Below are positions 52,170-63,598 of a DNA stretch of 64,000 bases, piece after piece. The stretch is from Acidobacteriota bacterium (GTDB taxonomy: Bacteria; Acidobacteriota; Terriglobia; Versatilivoradales; Versatilivoraceae): positions 62,001 to 126,000 of the forward strand of contig JAJDUG010000078.1 of the NCBI GenBank assembly GCA_022826755.1, in the 5' to 3' direction. Every line of letters starts with the position of its first letter. Within the stretch, counting starts at the first letter, position 1. The notes beneath the pieces are model-generated. The model was not told where the DNA came from and did no database searches. It saw nothing but the letters and a program-made list of their open reading frames with translations. Position numbers and translations under genes: made by a program.

Positions 52170-53858
52170 ATGCAAGCCCGCACATCTCACCAGGTCGCTG
52201 GCGATTTGCAAGTGCTCATGGAAGCCGAGCGGTCCAGCCCCTGGGCTCGGACTCCGGCGCCGGAGCTGGCCGGCCGGCTGTTCGAGGTGGCGGAGGCCTT
52301 TTACGCGCGTGGAGACCCCTTGGCCTCGGAGACCGCCGAACGCATGGGAGTGCCTCCGGCCTCGGTCTGGTTCGAGTCCCTGTTCCCCGCCGTATGGGGG
52401 CTGCTTGCCACCGCCTCCTTTCTGAAGACCCTGGAAAGCTCGCTGGGTGAGATCGTTGCCTCGGAGCCGATAGCCACCGGGGACTTCGCCGGGTCGCCGG
52501 CGTTGCGGCTGCTTCCCGTCAACCCATTCCAACGCCTGCTCCTGCCCGGCTTTTCCGGGCATGTCCTGCTGCGTCCGTCCCTGGGCCTGCCGCCAAAGCC
52601 GCCCTCCACAGAGGGACTGGCCCTGTGCCTGCTGCCCTTCAATCTGGCCGGCATCGGCGCCCTGGACATCCTTCACCTGCTTTGCCACGGTCCCCGGAGG
52701 GTCCTGGCCAAGGTCTCCGAGAAGGCTTCCTTTCTCAAGGATCACCTCGAGGAGATGTTCGCCCCTCTGGTGTCCTGTGGGGCCTTGTCCTTTGTGCAGG
52801 GCGGACCCGACACCGGTGCGTGGCTGGCGGCCCGTCCCGAGTTCGACCGGATCCACCTGACGGGCAGTGCGCGGACGGCTGCCGCGTTGCGGGCCATCGC
52901 CGGGCAGGACAAGGTCACCTGCGAGCTGGGAGGAGTGACCCCGGCCATCGTTCTTCCCGAGGTCGGAGGGAACAGTCGCCTGTTGATCCAGGTGGCGCGG
53001 CAGTTGGTTTTCGGAGCCCTGGCCAACAACGGGCAGCACTGCGTCAGCTACCAGGTGGTCCTGGTCCCGGATTCCCTGCGGGCCGCCCTGGGTCAGGCGC
53101 TGGCCCGCGAGATGGCTCTGGTTTCCCGGGCGGGTGGCCTGGCCGGCCCCCATCGCCTGCTGATCGACGAGGAGGCATCCTCCCGGGTGGCGGCCATGGT
53201 CGAGGACGCCCGCCGTCAGGGGGCCTCAGTGACTTCTATCGGGGATGAAGCCGGGGGGCGCCGCTTCCCGGTTACACTCCTGAACGGGATCACCGAAGAG
53301 ATGCGGCTCTTTCGCGAGGAGGCGTTCGGTCCGCTGGTGGGTCTGGCGGGCCTGCCCGACGGGGACTTCAGCCGGGCGGCGCTTTCTCGGGCCAATCAGC
53401 CCGCTCTGACGGGTGACCTGGGCGCCTCGGTGTTTACCCCGTTTCCGAACTCGGAGCCCGTTCGGCAACTGGCTCGCGGCCTCAAGCACGGGGTGGTGGC
53501 CATCAACAGCTATCCCGGGGTGGCCTACGCCACCTCTCTGCCCTGGGGCCCCGGCCCCGGACAGGCCAGCGGCCGGGGTTGGGTGCACAATTTCCGGTTT
53601 CTGGACGAATCCCGGATGGAGAAGGTGGTGCTGGCGGCCCCGCTGGCAAGGAAAGGGCTGGGTCCGCTGGCCTGGGAGGATCCCTGGCTCCCCAACGTCT
53701 CGGGCCGCGGTCCGCTTCGGCTGGCCAAGGCCCTGGTGCGTTCGGCCCTGGCCTACTTCCGCCAGCAGCCCTGCCGGCTGCTGGCTGCGCAGCGGGACCT
53801 GATTCCGGCGCTGATCGGACGCGAGCTTGGCGCCCGGCGCCTGGACGGTTTTCTATGA
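52170..53858 (+). CDS. Aldehyde dehydrogenase superfamily protein (acyl/aldehyde, long form)
   Basis: 562 residues from the ATG at 52170; an open frame further upstream would read through the tRNA. The NAD fold has 'LTGSARTAAALRAIAG', the general-base Glu in 'TCELGGVTPAIVLPEV' and the catalytic Cys in 'ANNGQHCVSYQVVLV'. 'EAFGPLVGLAGLP' and 'VVAINSYPGVAYA' are conserved later. N- and C-terminal extensions of about 50 residues are unusual for the family. It could oxidise long-chain fatty aldehydes or reduce acyl thioesters. It faces the lipid cluster and overlaps the PlsC gene by 6 bases, tail to tail. Confidence 0.85.
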   Translation: MQARTSHQVAGDLQVLMEAERSSPWARTPAPELAGRLFEVAEAFYARGDPLASETAERMGVPPASVWFESLFPAVWGLLATASFLKTLESSLGEIVASEPIATGDFAGSPALRLLPVNPFQRLLLPGFSGHVLLRPSLGLPPKPPSTEGLALCLLPFNLAGIGALDILHLLCHGPRRVLAKVSEKASFLKDHLEEMFAPLVSCGALSFVQGGPDTGAWLAARPEFDRIHLTGSARTAAALRAIAGQDKVTCELGGVTPAIVLPEVGGNSRLLIQVARQLVFGALANNGQHCVSYQVVLVPDSLRAALGQALAREMALVSRAGGLAGPHRLLIDEEASSRVAAMVEDARRQGASVTSIGDEAGGRRFPVTLLNGITEEMRLFREEAFGPLVGLAGLPDGDFSRAALSRANQPALTGDLGASVFTPFPNSEPVRQLARGLKHGVVAINSYPGVAYATSLPWGPGPGQASGRGWVHNFRFLDESRMEKVVLAAPLARKGLGPLAWEDPWLPNVSGRGPLRLAKALVRSALAYFRQQPCRLLAAQRDLIPALIGRELGARRLDGFL

Positions 53859-54623
53859 TGAAACGGAAGCCGGGCCGGCGTGGCCTGAAGGGTGTTTCCG
53901 CAGATTCTCCTCCACCGGTTCGGCAATGACACGGTGCACCCGTTCCATCAGAGCGGGGATGTCCCGCGGCCCCAGTCCCTTGGTCTGGATGGTGTCATGC
54001 AGGTGCACGGTAATTCGGGAAGGGTAGAGCATGACGCTTCCCTTGCGGCAGAACTGGAACGATCCGCAAATGCTCATGGGAACGATGGGGGCGCCCAGCC
54101 GCTGGGCGATGGCGAAGGCTCCCTTTTGGAAGGGTCCCACCCGGCCGTCCAGGGTCCGCGACCCCTCGGCAAATACGACCACGCTGATTCCATCCTGGAG
54201 GTGGGAGCGGACCCGGTTCACCAGGGCCTTGAACTGGGACGGCCCCCCGCCCCTGCTCACCGGAATGTTGCCGAAACGGCTCATCATCCATCCGTAAGCC
54301 GGGATCTTGAAGTGGGACTCCAGCTCCAGGCCTCGAACGAACTGAGGGATCCCGCAATAGACGACAAAGGCGTCGAAAATGTTCACGTGGTTGCAGATGA
54401 AGATGCTGGTCTGATCGGGGTCGAAACCCGGACCCCATCGCTTGCCGAAGCGGACGCCCGCCAGTCTGACGATATTGCGGCAGAAGACCCTCTGAGGCCA
54501 GTCGTTCCAGCGCGGGTTCACAAAGATGCCCAGCGCCACCAGAAAAGTGCAGACGGTGAAGAAGTGCAGGCTGCTGACCGCCCAGATCAGGCCGCAGCGC
54601 AGGGTGAAATAGAGTCGGCGCAT
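53853..54623 (-). CDS. PlsC-family 1-acylglycerol-phosphate acyltransferase
   Basis: 256 residues. An N-terminal membrane helix (SSLHFFTVCTFLVALGIFV) is followed by the catalytic His-X4-Asp in 'CNHVNIFDAFV' and the substrate motif 'FAEGSRTLDGRVGPFQKGAF' (core EGSRT). 'IVPMSICG' is the fourth block. It acylates lysophosphatidic acid or a similar lysolipid at the inner membrane. It lies 54 bases downstream of the lipid kinase gene on the same strand. The acyl donor may be the cluster's own ACP (inference). Confidence 0.88.
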   Translation of the reverse strand: MRRLYFTLRCGLIWAVSSLHFFTVCTFLVALGIFVNPRWNDWPQRVFCRNIVRLAGVRFGKRWGPGFDPDQTSIFICNHVNIFDAFVVYCGIPQFVRGLELESHFKIPAYGWMMSRFGNIPVSRGGGPSQFKALVNRVRSHLQDGISVVVFAEGSRTLDGRVGPFQKGAFAIAQRLGAPIVPMSICGSFQFCRKGSVMLYPSRITVHLHDTIQTKGLGPRDIPALMERVHRVIAEPVEENLRKHPSGHAGPASVSS

Positions 54624-62471: not shown

Positions 62472-63598
62472 GGGGCAGCCCCCCTCTCGGGCCATTCCCG
62501 GTAGGGATAGGTGAAGTGGTTCCTGGTGGCGAACCGATAGAGAGGATAGCAGTAGTCGGTGAAACCTGCCGGGGTCATCCCCGTTTCCTGCACCACCCGG
62601 CTGTTGTCGAAGACCGTGTTCCAATGCAGGTAGGGAAGAAAGACCTGCATGAGACTGGCCAGATAGCCGACCGCGGTGCCTCGGCGGCGGGCCAGCCAGC
62701 TCACCAGGGAGTTGACGGGGCGGATCAGCGAGGGGGCATAGGTGGGCCGGCGGCGGTTTCGTATGGCGCTCAAGGCGTTGGTAATGTCCTGGCAGGTGGG
62801 AGAGTCTCTTCCGGAAGAAAGATGGTAGGTGTCGAAGCCGGGGTTCTCTTTCTGGTGCAGCGTCGCCACCGCCTCGGCCACGAAGTCCACGTTGACGATG
62901 TCCAGGCGGTCGCCGGCTCGCAGCGGAAGCAGCGGCAACCCAGCCAGGAAGGCGAAGGCCTGAACCATGTCGAACTGGGTGGTTTCCGCCCGCCGGCTGT
63001 CTCCCAGCACGATGCTGGGGCGAAAGATGGTCAGGGGAGTTTCCGGCAGAAGCTCCCGGATCAGGTGTTCGGAGAACTTCTTGGTGCGGGCGTAGGGATC
63101 GTAGTCCGAGCGGTTCCAGTCGATGGCTTCCTCTTCTCCGATGACTTCGTCCTGGCGGGTTCCCGCCACCGCCACCGTGCTGATGTGGCTGAAACGCTTC
63201 AGGCCGTGATCGGCGGAGATGGCCTGGGCCAGCTTGACGACTTCCAGGGTGCCTTTGAGATTGATGTTCAGGCAGGCTCGTTCCGATTTGCGGTTGAGCG
63301 AGGCCGCCACGTGCAGGATCGAATCCGTGTTCTTGACCAGGTGGCGATACTGGTCGGGGCTGAAACCGAATCCCTCTTCGGTGAGGTCCCCGGTCAGCAC
63401 CTCGATGCCGGTATTCAGGTGGTGGTGGAAGCGGTCGAAGTCCAGGTGCAGCTGAAAGGCCCGCCAAAGGCGTTGGGCCGCGGCTTCACGGTCGGGAGCC
63501 CGCACCAGAAGAACAAGGCGCTGGTGGTGTTTCTCCAGCAACTCGGTGGCGATGTGAGCGCCAAGGTAGCCTGTGGATCCGGTGAGGAAGATGCCCAT
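62468..63598 (-). CDS. NAD(P)-dependent acyl-thioester reductase (male-sterility / NAD_binding_4 SDR)
   Basis: 376 residues. Rossmann 'IFLTGSTGYLGAHIATELL', early 'LVLLVRAPDREAAAQRL' and 'EVLTGDLTEEGFGFS' are characteristic of fatty acyl-CoA reductases and thioester-reductase domains. The SDR catalytic pair is Tyr-X3-Lys in 'YDPYARTKKFSEHLI', and 'LTIFRPSIVLGDSR' follows. It probably reduces acyl-CoA or acyl-ACP to aldehyde or alcohol. It is the first gene of the minus-strand lipid group. A short transposon-like element lies 8 bases upstream. Confidence 0.85.
   Translation of the reverse strand: MGIFLTGSTGYLGAHIATELLEKHHQRLVLLVRAPDREAAAQRLWRAFQLHLDFDRFHHHLNTGIEVLTGDLTEEGFGFSPDQYRHLVKNTDSILHVAASLNRKSERACLNINLKGTLEVVKLAQAISADHGLKRFSHISTVAVAGTRQDEVIGEEEAIDWNRSDYDPYARTKKFSEHLIRELLPETPLTIFRPSIVLGDSRRAETTQFDMVQAFAFLAGLPLLPLRAGDRLDIVNVDFVAEAVATLHQKENPGFDTYHLSSGRDSPTCQDITNALSAIRNRRRPTYAPSLIRPVNSLVSWLARRRGTAVGYLASLMQVFLPYLHWNTVFDNSRVVQETGMTPAGFTDYCYPLYRFATRNHFTYPYREWPERGAAP

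What the first reader, a model, noticed from the sequence alone, without database searches (positions are those of the whole stretch)
52170..63598. Candidate dedicated lipid biosynthesis cluster (activation, ACP, reduction, acylation, lipid phosphorylation)
Within 11.4 kb lie an aldehyde dehydrogenase, PlsC acyltransferase, lipid kinase, two acyl AMP ligases, a free ACP with a non-standard GINSLQ site, a crotonase, a pyruvyl-transferase relative and an acyl-thioester reductase, eight of them on one strand with several overlaps. The set AMP ligase + ACP + thioester reductase + PlsC resembles the domain content described for the myxobacterial ElbD ether-lipid enzyme, here split into separate genes. 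That makes alkyl or ether lipids, or fatty alcohol conjugates, plausible, but no ketosynthase or ether-forming enzyme is seen. The end product is undetermined.
Basis: partly seen in the sequence, partly recalled or inferred. Interest (0 to 1): 0.78.

Follow-up and report, generated by a model that had tools for sequence, protein, structure and literature searches.

The report
Split ether-lipid gene cluster in Acidobacteriota
A nine-gene cluster that keeps the same order across hundreds of soil, groundwater and sponge-associated Acidobacteriota looks like a taken-apart and modified relative of the bacterial 'elb' ether-lipid genes, so it is a candidate for making fatty-alcohol-derived, possibly ether-linked, membrane lipids in lineages where no such pathway was known.

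Summary
The conserved unit has nine genes. One was missed: it runs off the right edge of the window and encodes a HAD domain fused to an alcohol-forming fatty acyl-CoA reductase (FAR). The aldehyde dehydrogenase is not a member; it occurs only in near relatives.

The order HADFAR-TER-PPT-AL2-ECH-ACP-AL1-LipK-PlsC was never broken in 20 genomes plus 80 named loci, at 50-99% identity, often with 4-nt overlaps. The marker PPT occurs in 115 of 399 sampled genomes of the class.

Other Acidobacteriota carry classical elb loci (HAD, LarA-like, fused FAR-ACS-ACP-PlsC ElbD, epimerase, often a lipid kinase). The cluster's HAD and FAR are homologous to ElbB and to the ElbD FAR domain. Differences: the HAD part has lost its catalytic residues in all 20, ElbC is absent, the ElbE slot holds a thioester reductase, and PPT, AL2 and ECH are added. 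The host has no fused ElbD, AGPS-like or PlsA-type gene.

Best reading: a new variant of the elb ether-lipid pathway. The fatty-alcohol step is well supported by homology; the ether bond and the end product are inferred.

The parts
63875..64000 (-). HADFAR, 3' end only (gene continues to about C74:128247, i.e. ~66247 in window numbering): N-terminal HAD-type domain without catalytic residues + NAD_binding_4 + Sterile (alcohol-forming fatty acyl-CoA reductase); first gene of the cluster
63600..63874 (.). ~275-bp MITE-like insertion with ~28-bp imperfect terminal inverted repeats between HADFAR and TER (not a cluster gene); four near-full other copies at 80-91% in this genome
   Evidence: the gap is 3-5 bp in three relatives of the same genus
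62468..63598 (-). TER, thioester reductase (NAD_binding_4, NRPS/CAR R-domain type), YxxxK conserved 20/20
61044..62471 (-). PPT, PS_pyruv_trans family (Pfam 33.9 bits), GT-B fold, invariant SR-x-H motif; cluster marker
59310..60962 (-). AL2, acyl-AMP ligase, FadD-like, P-loop and C-terminal Lys conserved
58113..58916 (-). ECH, enoyl hydratase/isomerase (crotonase) with both catalytic Glu motifs conserved 20/20
57762..58004 (-). ACP, free acyl carrier protein (site G-I-N/D-S-L-Q)
56041..57762 (-). AL1, acyl-AMP ligase, start overlaps the ACP stop by 1 nt; best non-cluster matches in the set examined are ElbD ACS domains
54678..55577 (-). LipK, YegS/DAGK-type lipid kinase, GGDGT conserved 19/19
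53853..54623 (-). PlsC-type acyltransferase, HX4D conserved 17/17; missing from 13 of the 80 named loci that extend at least 1.5 kb beyond LipK

Best explanation
The nine genes form one conserved lipid-biosynthesis operon that is a split, modified relative of the elb ether-lipid locus. Proposed working: AL1 activates a fatty acid and loads it on the dedicated ACP. The FAR half of HADFAR reduces the acyl thioester to a fatty alcohol; TER reduces a thioester to an aldehyde or supplies a second reduction. The alcohol-level chain is attached to glycerol, most likely as an alkyl ether as inferred for ElbD. PlsC adds an acyl chain. LipK phosphorylates the (alkyl)acylglycerol so that it can enter phospholipid synthesis. 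AL2 and ECH prepare a second, probably hydrated (3-hydroxy), acyl chain. PPT, a GT-B-fold pyruvyl/glycosyl-transferase-like protein, modifies the head group. The HAD domain, a catalytically dead relative of ElbB, now serves as a structural or docking part of the FAR. Shown: conserved operon, domain identities, homology of HAD and FAR with ElbB/ElbD, conserved catalytic motifs of the other activities, loss of the HAD active site. Inferred: substrates, order of steps, the ether bond, the head group.
For: Invariant gene order in 20 genomes and 80 named loci, with translational overlaps. Full-length HADFAR and close PPT are in exactly the same 9 of 297 phylum genomes (hypergeometric 2e-17). FAR domain: Pfam NAD_binding_4 + Sterile, best PDB match a fatty acyl-CoA reductase; groups with ElbD FARs, not with TERs. 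The HAD part aligns with ElbB over a shared 'RLEFxxGxATGRLLxP' stretch. Classical elb loci of other Acidobacteriota carry HAD, LarA-like, FAR-ACS-ACP-PlsC and epimerase genes, and a lipid kinase in 8 of 14 elb or elb-like loci. M. xanthus ElbD is required for most alkyl and vinyl ether lipid (PMC9131029). The host has no fused ElbD, no AGPS-like protein among its two best FAD-oxidase_C hits (the best is GlcD), and no DUF2229 (PlsA/Ger-type) match.
Against: No lipid data exist for any carrier examined. ElbC (LarA-like) and the epimerase-type ElbE are absent. No ether-forming enzyme is known even for ElbD. ElbD homologues do not guarantee ether lipids (Pontiella, PMC11868695). AL1+ElbD is not resolved as a clade, only not rejected. 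PlsC is missing in 13 loci.
Confidence: 0.5

Rival explanations
1. The operon makes a fatty-alcohol-derived lipid that is not a glycerol ether: e.g. a wax-ester-like or alcohol-conjugated lipid, or a long-chain 1,3-diol lipid (ECH hydrates an enoyl chain, FAR reduces the 3-hydroxyacyl thioester) that is then acylated, phosphorylated and given a head group.
For: FAR, ECH with both catalytic Glu, PlsC and lipid kinase suffice for such a product; no ether-forming enzyme is recognisable.
Against: The FAR and HAD parts belong to the ElbD/ElbB families. No wax ester synthase is among the nine conserved genes.
Confidence: 0.27
2. It is a sphingolipid/ceramide-type locus (ACP + acyl ligase + reductase + lipid kinase as in Caulobacter) in which serine palmitoyltransferase is encoded elsewhere.
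For: ACP, ACS and a lipid kinase are also part of bacterial sphingolipid loci.
Against: No serine palmitoyltransferase-type gene is among the nine conserved genes, and none was recognised among the recurrent flanking families. FAR is an alcohol-forming reductase with ElbD kinship.
Confidence: 0.05
3. A neighbourhood of beta-oxidation and phospholipid housekeeping genes without a common product.
For: AL2 groups with a FadD-like ligase of the same genome (support 97).
Against: Order kept across several families down to ~50% protein identity with changing flanks; exact co-occurrence of HADFAR and PPT; dedicated ACP and FAR.
Confidence: 0.04

Closest known systems
elb operon of Myxococcus xanthus (elbA-E; Lorenzen et al. 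2014 as reviewed in PMC9131029) and the elb-type loci of other Acidobacteriota (L138-L144, L148, L149, L155, L156 here)
   Same: HAD protein, FAR, acyl ligase, ACP and PlsC-type acyltransferase together; FAR nested among ElbD FARs; HAD homologous to ElbB; lipid kinase at 8 of 14 acidobacterial elb or elb-like loci.
   Different: ElbD is split into HADFAR, AL1, ACP and PlsC; HAD is fused to FAR and has lost its nucleophile and metal motif; no LarA-like ElbC; thioester reductase instead of epimerase-type ElbE; extra PPT, AL2, ECH. M. xanthus sequences themselves were not available for comparison.
Half-split elb-like loci L145-L147 (HAD, LarA-like protein, stand-alone FAR, epimerase-like SDR, lipid kinase)
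   Same: Stand-alone FAR of the ElbD FAR family with HAD and lipid kinase.
   Different: HAD separate and with intact catalytic motifs; LarA-like gene present; no match to PPT, AL1, AL2, ACP or ECH of the cluster in the fetched stretch.
elbD-like NRPS-like gene cluster families of sponge Acidobacteriota and Poribacteria (PMC9426513)
   Same: Same phylum, sponge hosts, proposed ether lipids, ACS/thiolation/acyltransferase/FAR content.
   Different: Described as one fused core gene; whether any of those families is the present split cluster could not be checked (supplements not readable).
Aerobic AGPS route, and anaerobic PlsA/Ger route, of ether-lipid synthesis
   Same: Shared use of fatty alcohol (AGPS route).
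   Different: The host genome shows no credible AGPS among its two best FAD-oxidase_C hits and has no DUF2229 match.
Caulobacter sphingolipid genes
   Same: ACP, acyl ligase and lipid kinase.
   Different: No serine palmitoyltransferase in the cluster; FAR, PlsC and PPT instead.

Membership tests
elb ether-lipid locus | FAR domain of the ElbD family | tested here: met
   FAR tree: cluster FARs (99) with ElbD and split FARs (98) against TER outgroup; 37-40% identity to the closest ElbDs
elb ether-lipid locus | ElbD as one fused FAR-ACS-ACP-PlsC protein | tested here: not met
   separate genes here; no fused frame in the host genome
elb ether-lipid locus | ElbB, HAD phosphohydrolase, catalytically intact | tested here: not met
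   homologous domain present, but nucleophile Asp and SDSxSD motif missing in 20/20; kept in acidobacterial ElbBs
elb ether-lipid locus | gene between ElbB and ElbD (ElbC position; LarA-like in the three acidobacterial loci scanned) | tested here: not met
   none in the cluster; best own LarA-like gene only 27% over part of its length
elb ether-lipid locus | ElbE, epimerase-type SDR | tested here: not met
   TER is R-domain type; 24-26% to acidobacterial ElbE
elb ether-lipid locus | ACS of ElbD type (AL1) | tested here: inconclusive
   best hits are ElbD ACS (241 bits; own non-cluster ligases 199 or less), but the AU test only fails to reject (p 0.33-0.67)
elb ether-lipid locus | production of alkyl/vinyl ether lipid | not testable with these tools
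   needs lipidomics or mutants
AGPS-dependent ether-lipid route | alkyl-DHAP synthase in the genome | tested here: not met
   three FAD-oxidase_C hits; the best is GlcD (2e-84 against 1e-24 for AGPS), the 1008-aa frame matches glycolate/2-hydroxyglutarate oxidoreductases; the third (8e-19) lies beside GlcD and was not searched further
PlsA/Ger route | DUF2229-containing protein | tested here: not met
   0 matches in the host genome
polysaccharide pyruvyl transferase (PPT) | family profile and R-x-H motif | tested here: met
   Pfam 33.9 bits over cut-off 25.3; SRxH 20/20
polysaccharide pyruvyl transferase (PPT) | pyruvyl transfer from PEP | not testable with these tools
   GT-B fold fits, but many glycosyltransferases and epimerases score alike
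bacterial sphingolipid locus | serine palmitoyltransferase in the locus | tested here: not met
   not among the nine conserved genes; none recognised among recurrent flanks

The most novel reading that the evidence does not exclude
A previously undescribed lipid class of Acidobacteriota: an alkyl-ether or long-chain-diol phospholipid whose head group is modified (pyruvyl ketal or glycosyl) by the PPT protein, made by a split elb pathway with a pseudophosphatase-FAR fusion.
Probability: 0.25. Interest if true: 0.85.

Novelty: new variant of a known kind. Interest (0 to 1): 0.62.

Why it matters
How aerobic bacteria make glycerol ether lipids, and which Acidobacteriota make the ether lipids read as climate proxies, are open questions. 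elb homologues were reported only for some subdivision 4 members, and Solibacter usitatus is said to lack ElbD (PMC10087280, PMC11868695). A conserved split elb relative in more than a quarter of the sampled genomes of the class gives a concrete set of mostly single-domain enzymes that can be expressed and assayed one by one, which the ~1,500-aa ElbD does not allow.

Tried and rejected
ALDH as a cluster member: rejected (only host genus and one other genus). AL1 as a duplicate of AL2: rejected (AU p 0.009). HAD as an active partner phosphatase to LipK: rejected after the alignment. PPT function by fold: a GT-B fold is found (Z about 21 to UDP-GlcNAc epimerases) but does not separate pyruvyl from glycosyl transfer; no sequence match in PDB. 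PPT paralogue context (L150): patatin, MFS and unrelated genes, not informative. Conserved tenth gene: none found; a convergent CDP-alcohol phosphatidyltransferase ends ~75 bp away in 22 loci but on the other strand. LipK tree: cluster kinases form one group, but their place relative to elb-side kinases is unresolved. Direct comparison with M. xanthus elb: not possible, no sequence at hand. Literature on this exact cluster: none found in the held library. Two rows of the first AMP-ligase tree were wrong frames (L168, L174); the tree was rebuilt without them.
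Full report
What is there. Eight lie on the minus strand. The window is part of a 138-kb contig of a 4.6-Mb genome. Names for the host itself were not available; the sponge link rests on my reading of such record titles and is not tested.

A missed gene. Immediately upstream of TER, in every genome examined, lies a gene of about 790 aa. 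In this genome it begins outside the window and ends at 63875; it is intact (94% identical to its homologue in L017). Pfam finds HAD, NAD_binding_4 and Sterile domains. Its best PDB match is a fatty acyl-CoA reductase, E 1.6e-44. In this genome a 275-bp MITE-like element with terminal inverted repeats sits between it and TER; in three relatives of the same genus the gap is 3-5 bp.

Conservation. TER was found above 470 bits in 26 of 61 genomes. In 20 genomes from four families the order HADFAR-TER-PPT-AL2-ECH-ACP-AL1-LipK-PlsC is identical as far as the contigs reach, except that PlsC was not found in two. Many junctions overlap by 1-4 nt. A scan of 84,980 species genomes with the PPT profile gave 356 relatives; among the best 80, nearly all titled as Acidobacteriota, order and strand were never violated, 34 loci hold all nine and 47 the first eight. 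PlsC is missing from 13 loci that extend at least 1.5 kb beyond LipK. One locus (L079) has only the first four genes together. PPT occurs in 115 of 399 genomes of the class and in 10 of 297 of the phylum, one of them distant. Full-length HADFAR and close PPT fall in the same nine of the 297. Flanking genes differ between groups (leuA/leuB-like, a VKOR-like gene, a CDP-alcohol phosphatidyltransferase on the other strand), so the unit is bounded. The ALDH is found only in the host genus and in G008.

Relation to elb. The HADFAR search over the phylum also matched frames of about 1,450-1,525 aa at 29-40% on the FAR part, and separate 220-300-aa HAD frames near many of them. Domain scans of one such locus show FAR-AMP-ACP-PlsC (ElbD), a HAD protein (ElbB), a LarA-like protein in the ElbC position and an epimerase-type SDR (ElbE). 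A YegS-type kinase was found in 8 of 14 fetched elb or elb-like loci (chance about 1e-11 under a simple density model). Three loci have FAR as a stand-alone protein. In the FAR tree the cluster forms one group (99) among the ElbD and stand-alone FARs (98), apart from TERs; long branches at the outgroup join are flagged. The HAD domains align well, but the cluster proteins have lost the nucleophile Asp and the SDSxSD motif in 20 of 20. AL1's best non-cluster hits in the set examined are ElbD ACS domains, yet the trees neither show nor reject a joint clade; grouping AL1 with AL2 is rejected. AL2 groups with a FadD-like ligase of the same genome.

Catalytic state. YxxxK of FAR and TER, P-loop and C-terminal Lys of AL2 (wherever the frame reaches), crotonase Glu motifs, ACP serine, GGDGT of LipK, HX4D of PlsC and SRxH of PPT are conserved. 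The AL1 P-loop pattern matched 19 of 20. The PPT model (pLDDT 84.6) has a GT-B fold.

Other ether-lipid routes in the host. No fused ElbD. Of three FAD-oxidase_C matches, the best is GlcD and the 1008-aa frame resembles glycolate/2-hydroxyglutarate oxidoreductases rather than AGPS; the third lies beside GlcD and was not searched further. No DUF2229 match. A FAR-less AMP-ACP-PlsC protein is encoded on C65.

Interpretation. M. xanthus ElbD is needed for most ether lipid there, by an unknown mechanism (PMC9131029). By homology, the present operon is a split variant of that system. The fatty-alcohol step is well supported; the ether bond, substrates and head group are inferred. By strict membership it is not an elb locus, since fused ElbD, intact ElbB, ElbC and ElbE-type genes are not met; it probably works like one. 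Whether the sponge 'elbD-like' gene cluster families (PMC9426513) include this cluster could not be checked. PMC10087280 reports that Solibacter usitatus lacks ElbD; whether it has the split cluster was not determined.

Noticed in passing
window 63600-63874: MITE-like element with ~28-bp imperfect terminal inverted repeats inserted in the operon of this genome; several other near-full copies at 80-91% in the genome; the gap is 3-5 bp in three congeners (L019 shows 427 bp by the frame found).
   Followed up: partly
window 52052-52148: tRNA-Sec directly upstream of the ALDH; the pair is kept in three congeners and in G008 (L017, L018, L020, L021).
   Followed up: partly
L052:6460-10759 (G000:C74:26459-30758): B12-binding radical SAM protein overlapping an 865-aa reductase(SDR)-sulfotransferase fusion, next to a 2134-aa frame: looks like another lipid or polyketide locus.
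   Followed up: no
L138:8456-10054, L145:8461-10128, L147:1223-3106: The gene in the ElbC position of acidobacterial elb loci is LarA-like (Lar_N, lactate racemase family); ElbC is described as of unknown function in M. xanthus.
   Followed up: partly
L113:7084-8769: Radical SAM protein inserted between AL2 and ECH in one genome (G056).
   Followed up: no
L085:17585-18328 and 21 other loci: CDP-alcohol phosphatidyltransferase convergent with the cluster, ~75 bp away.
   Followed up: partly
window 27747, 35720, 55643, 58997: Intergenic short repeats of the type 'ACGAATGnACACGAAT', two of them in spacers inside the operon.
   Followed up: no
window 24550-25605: Four direct repeats of 270 nt, nearly all head to tail, identity to the first copy falling from 84 to 62%.
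   Followed up: no
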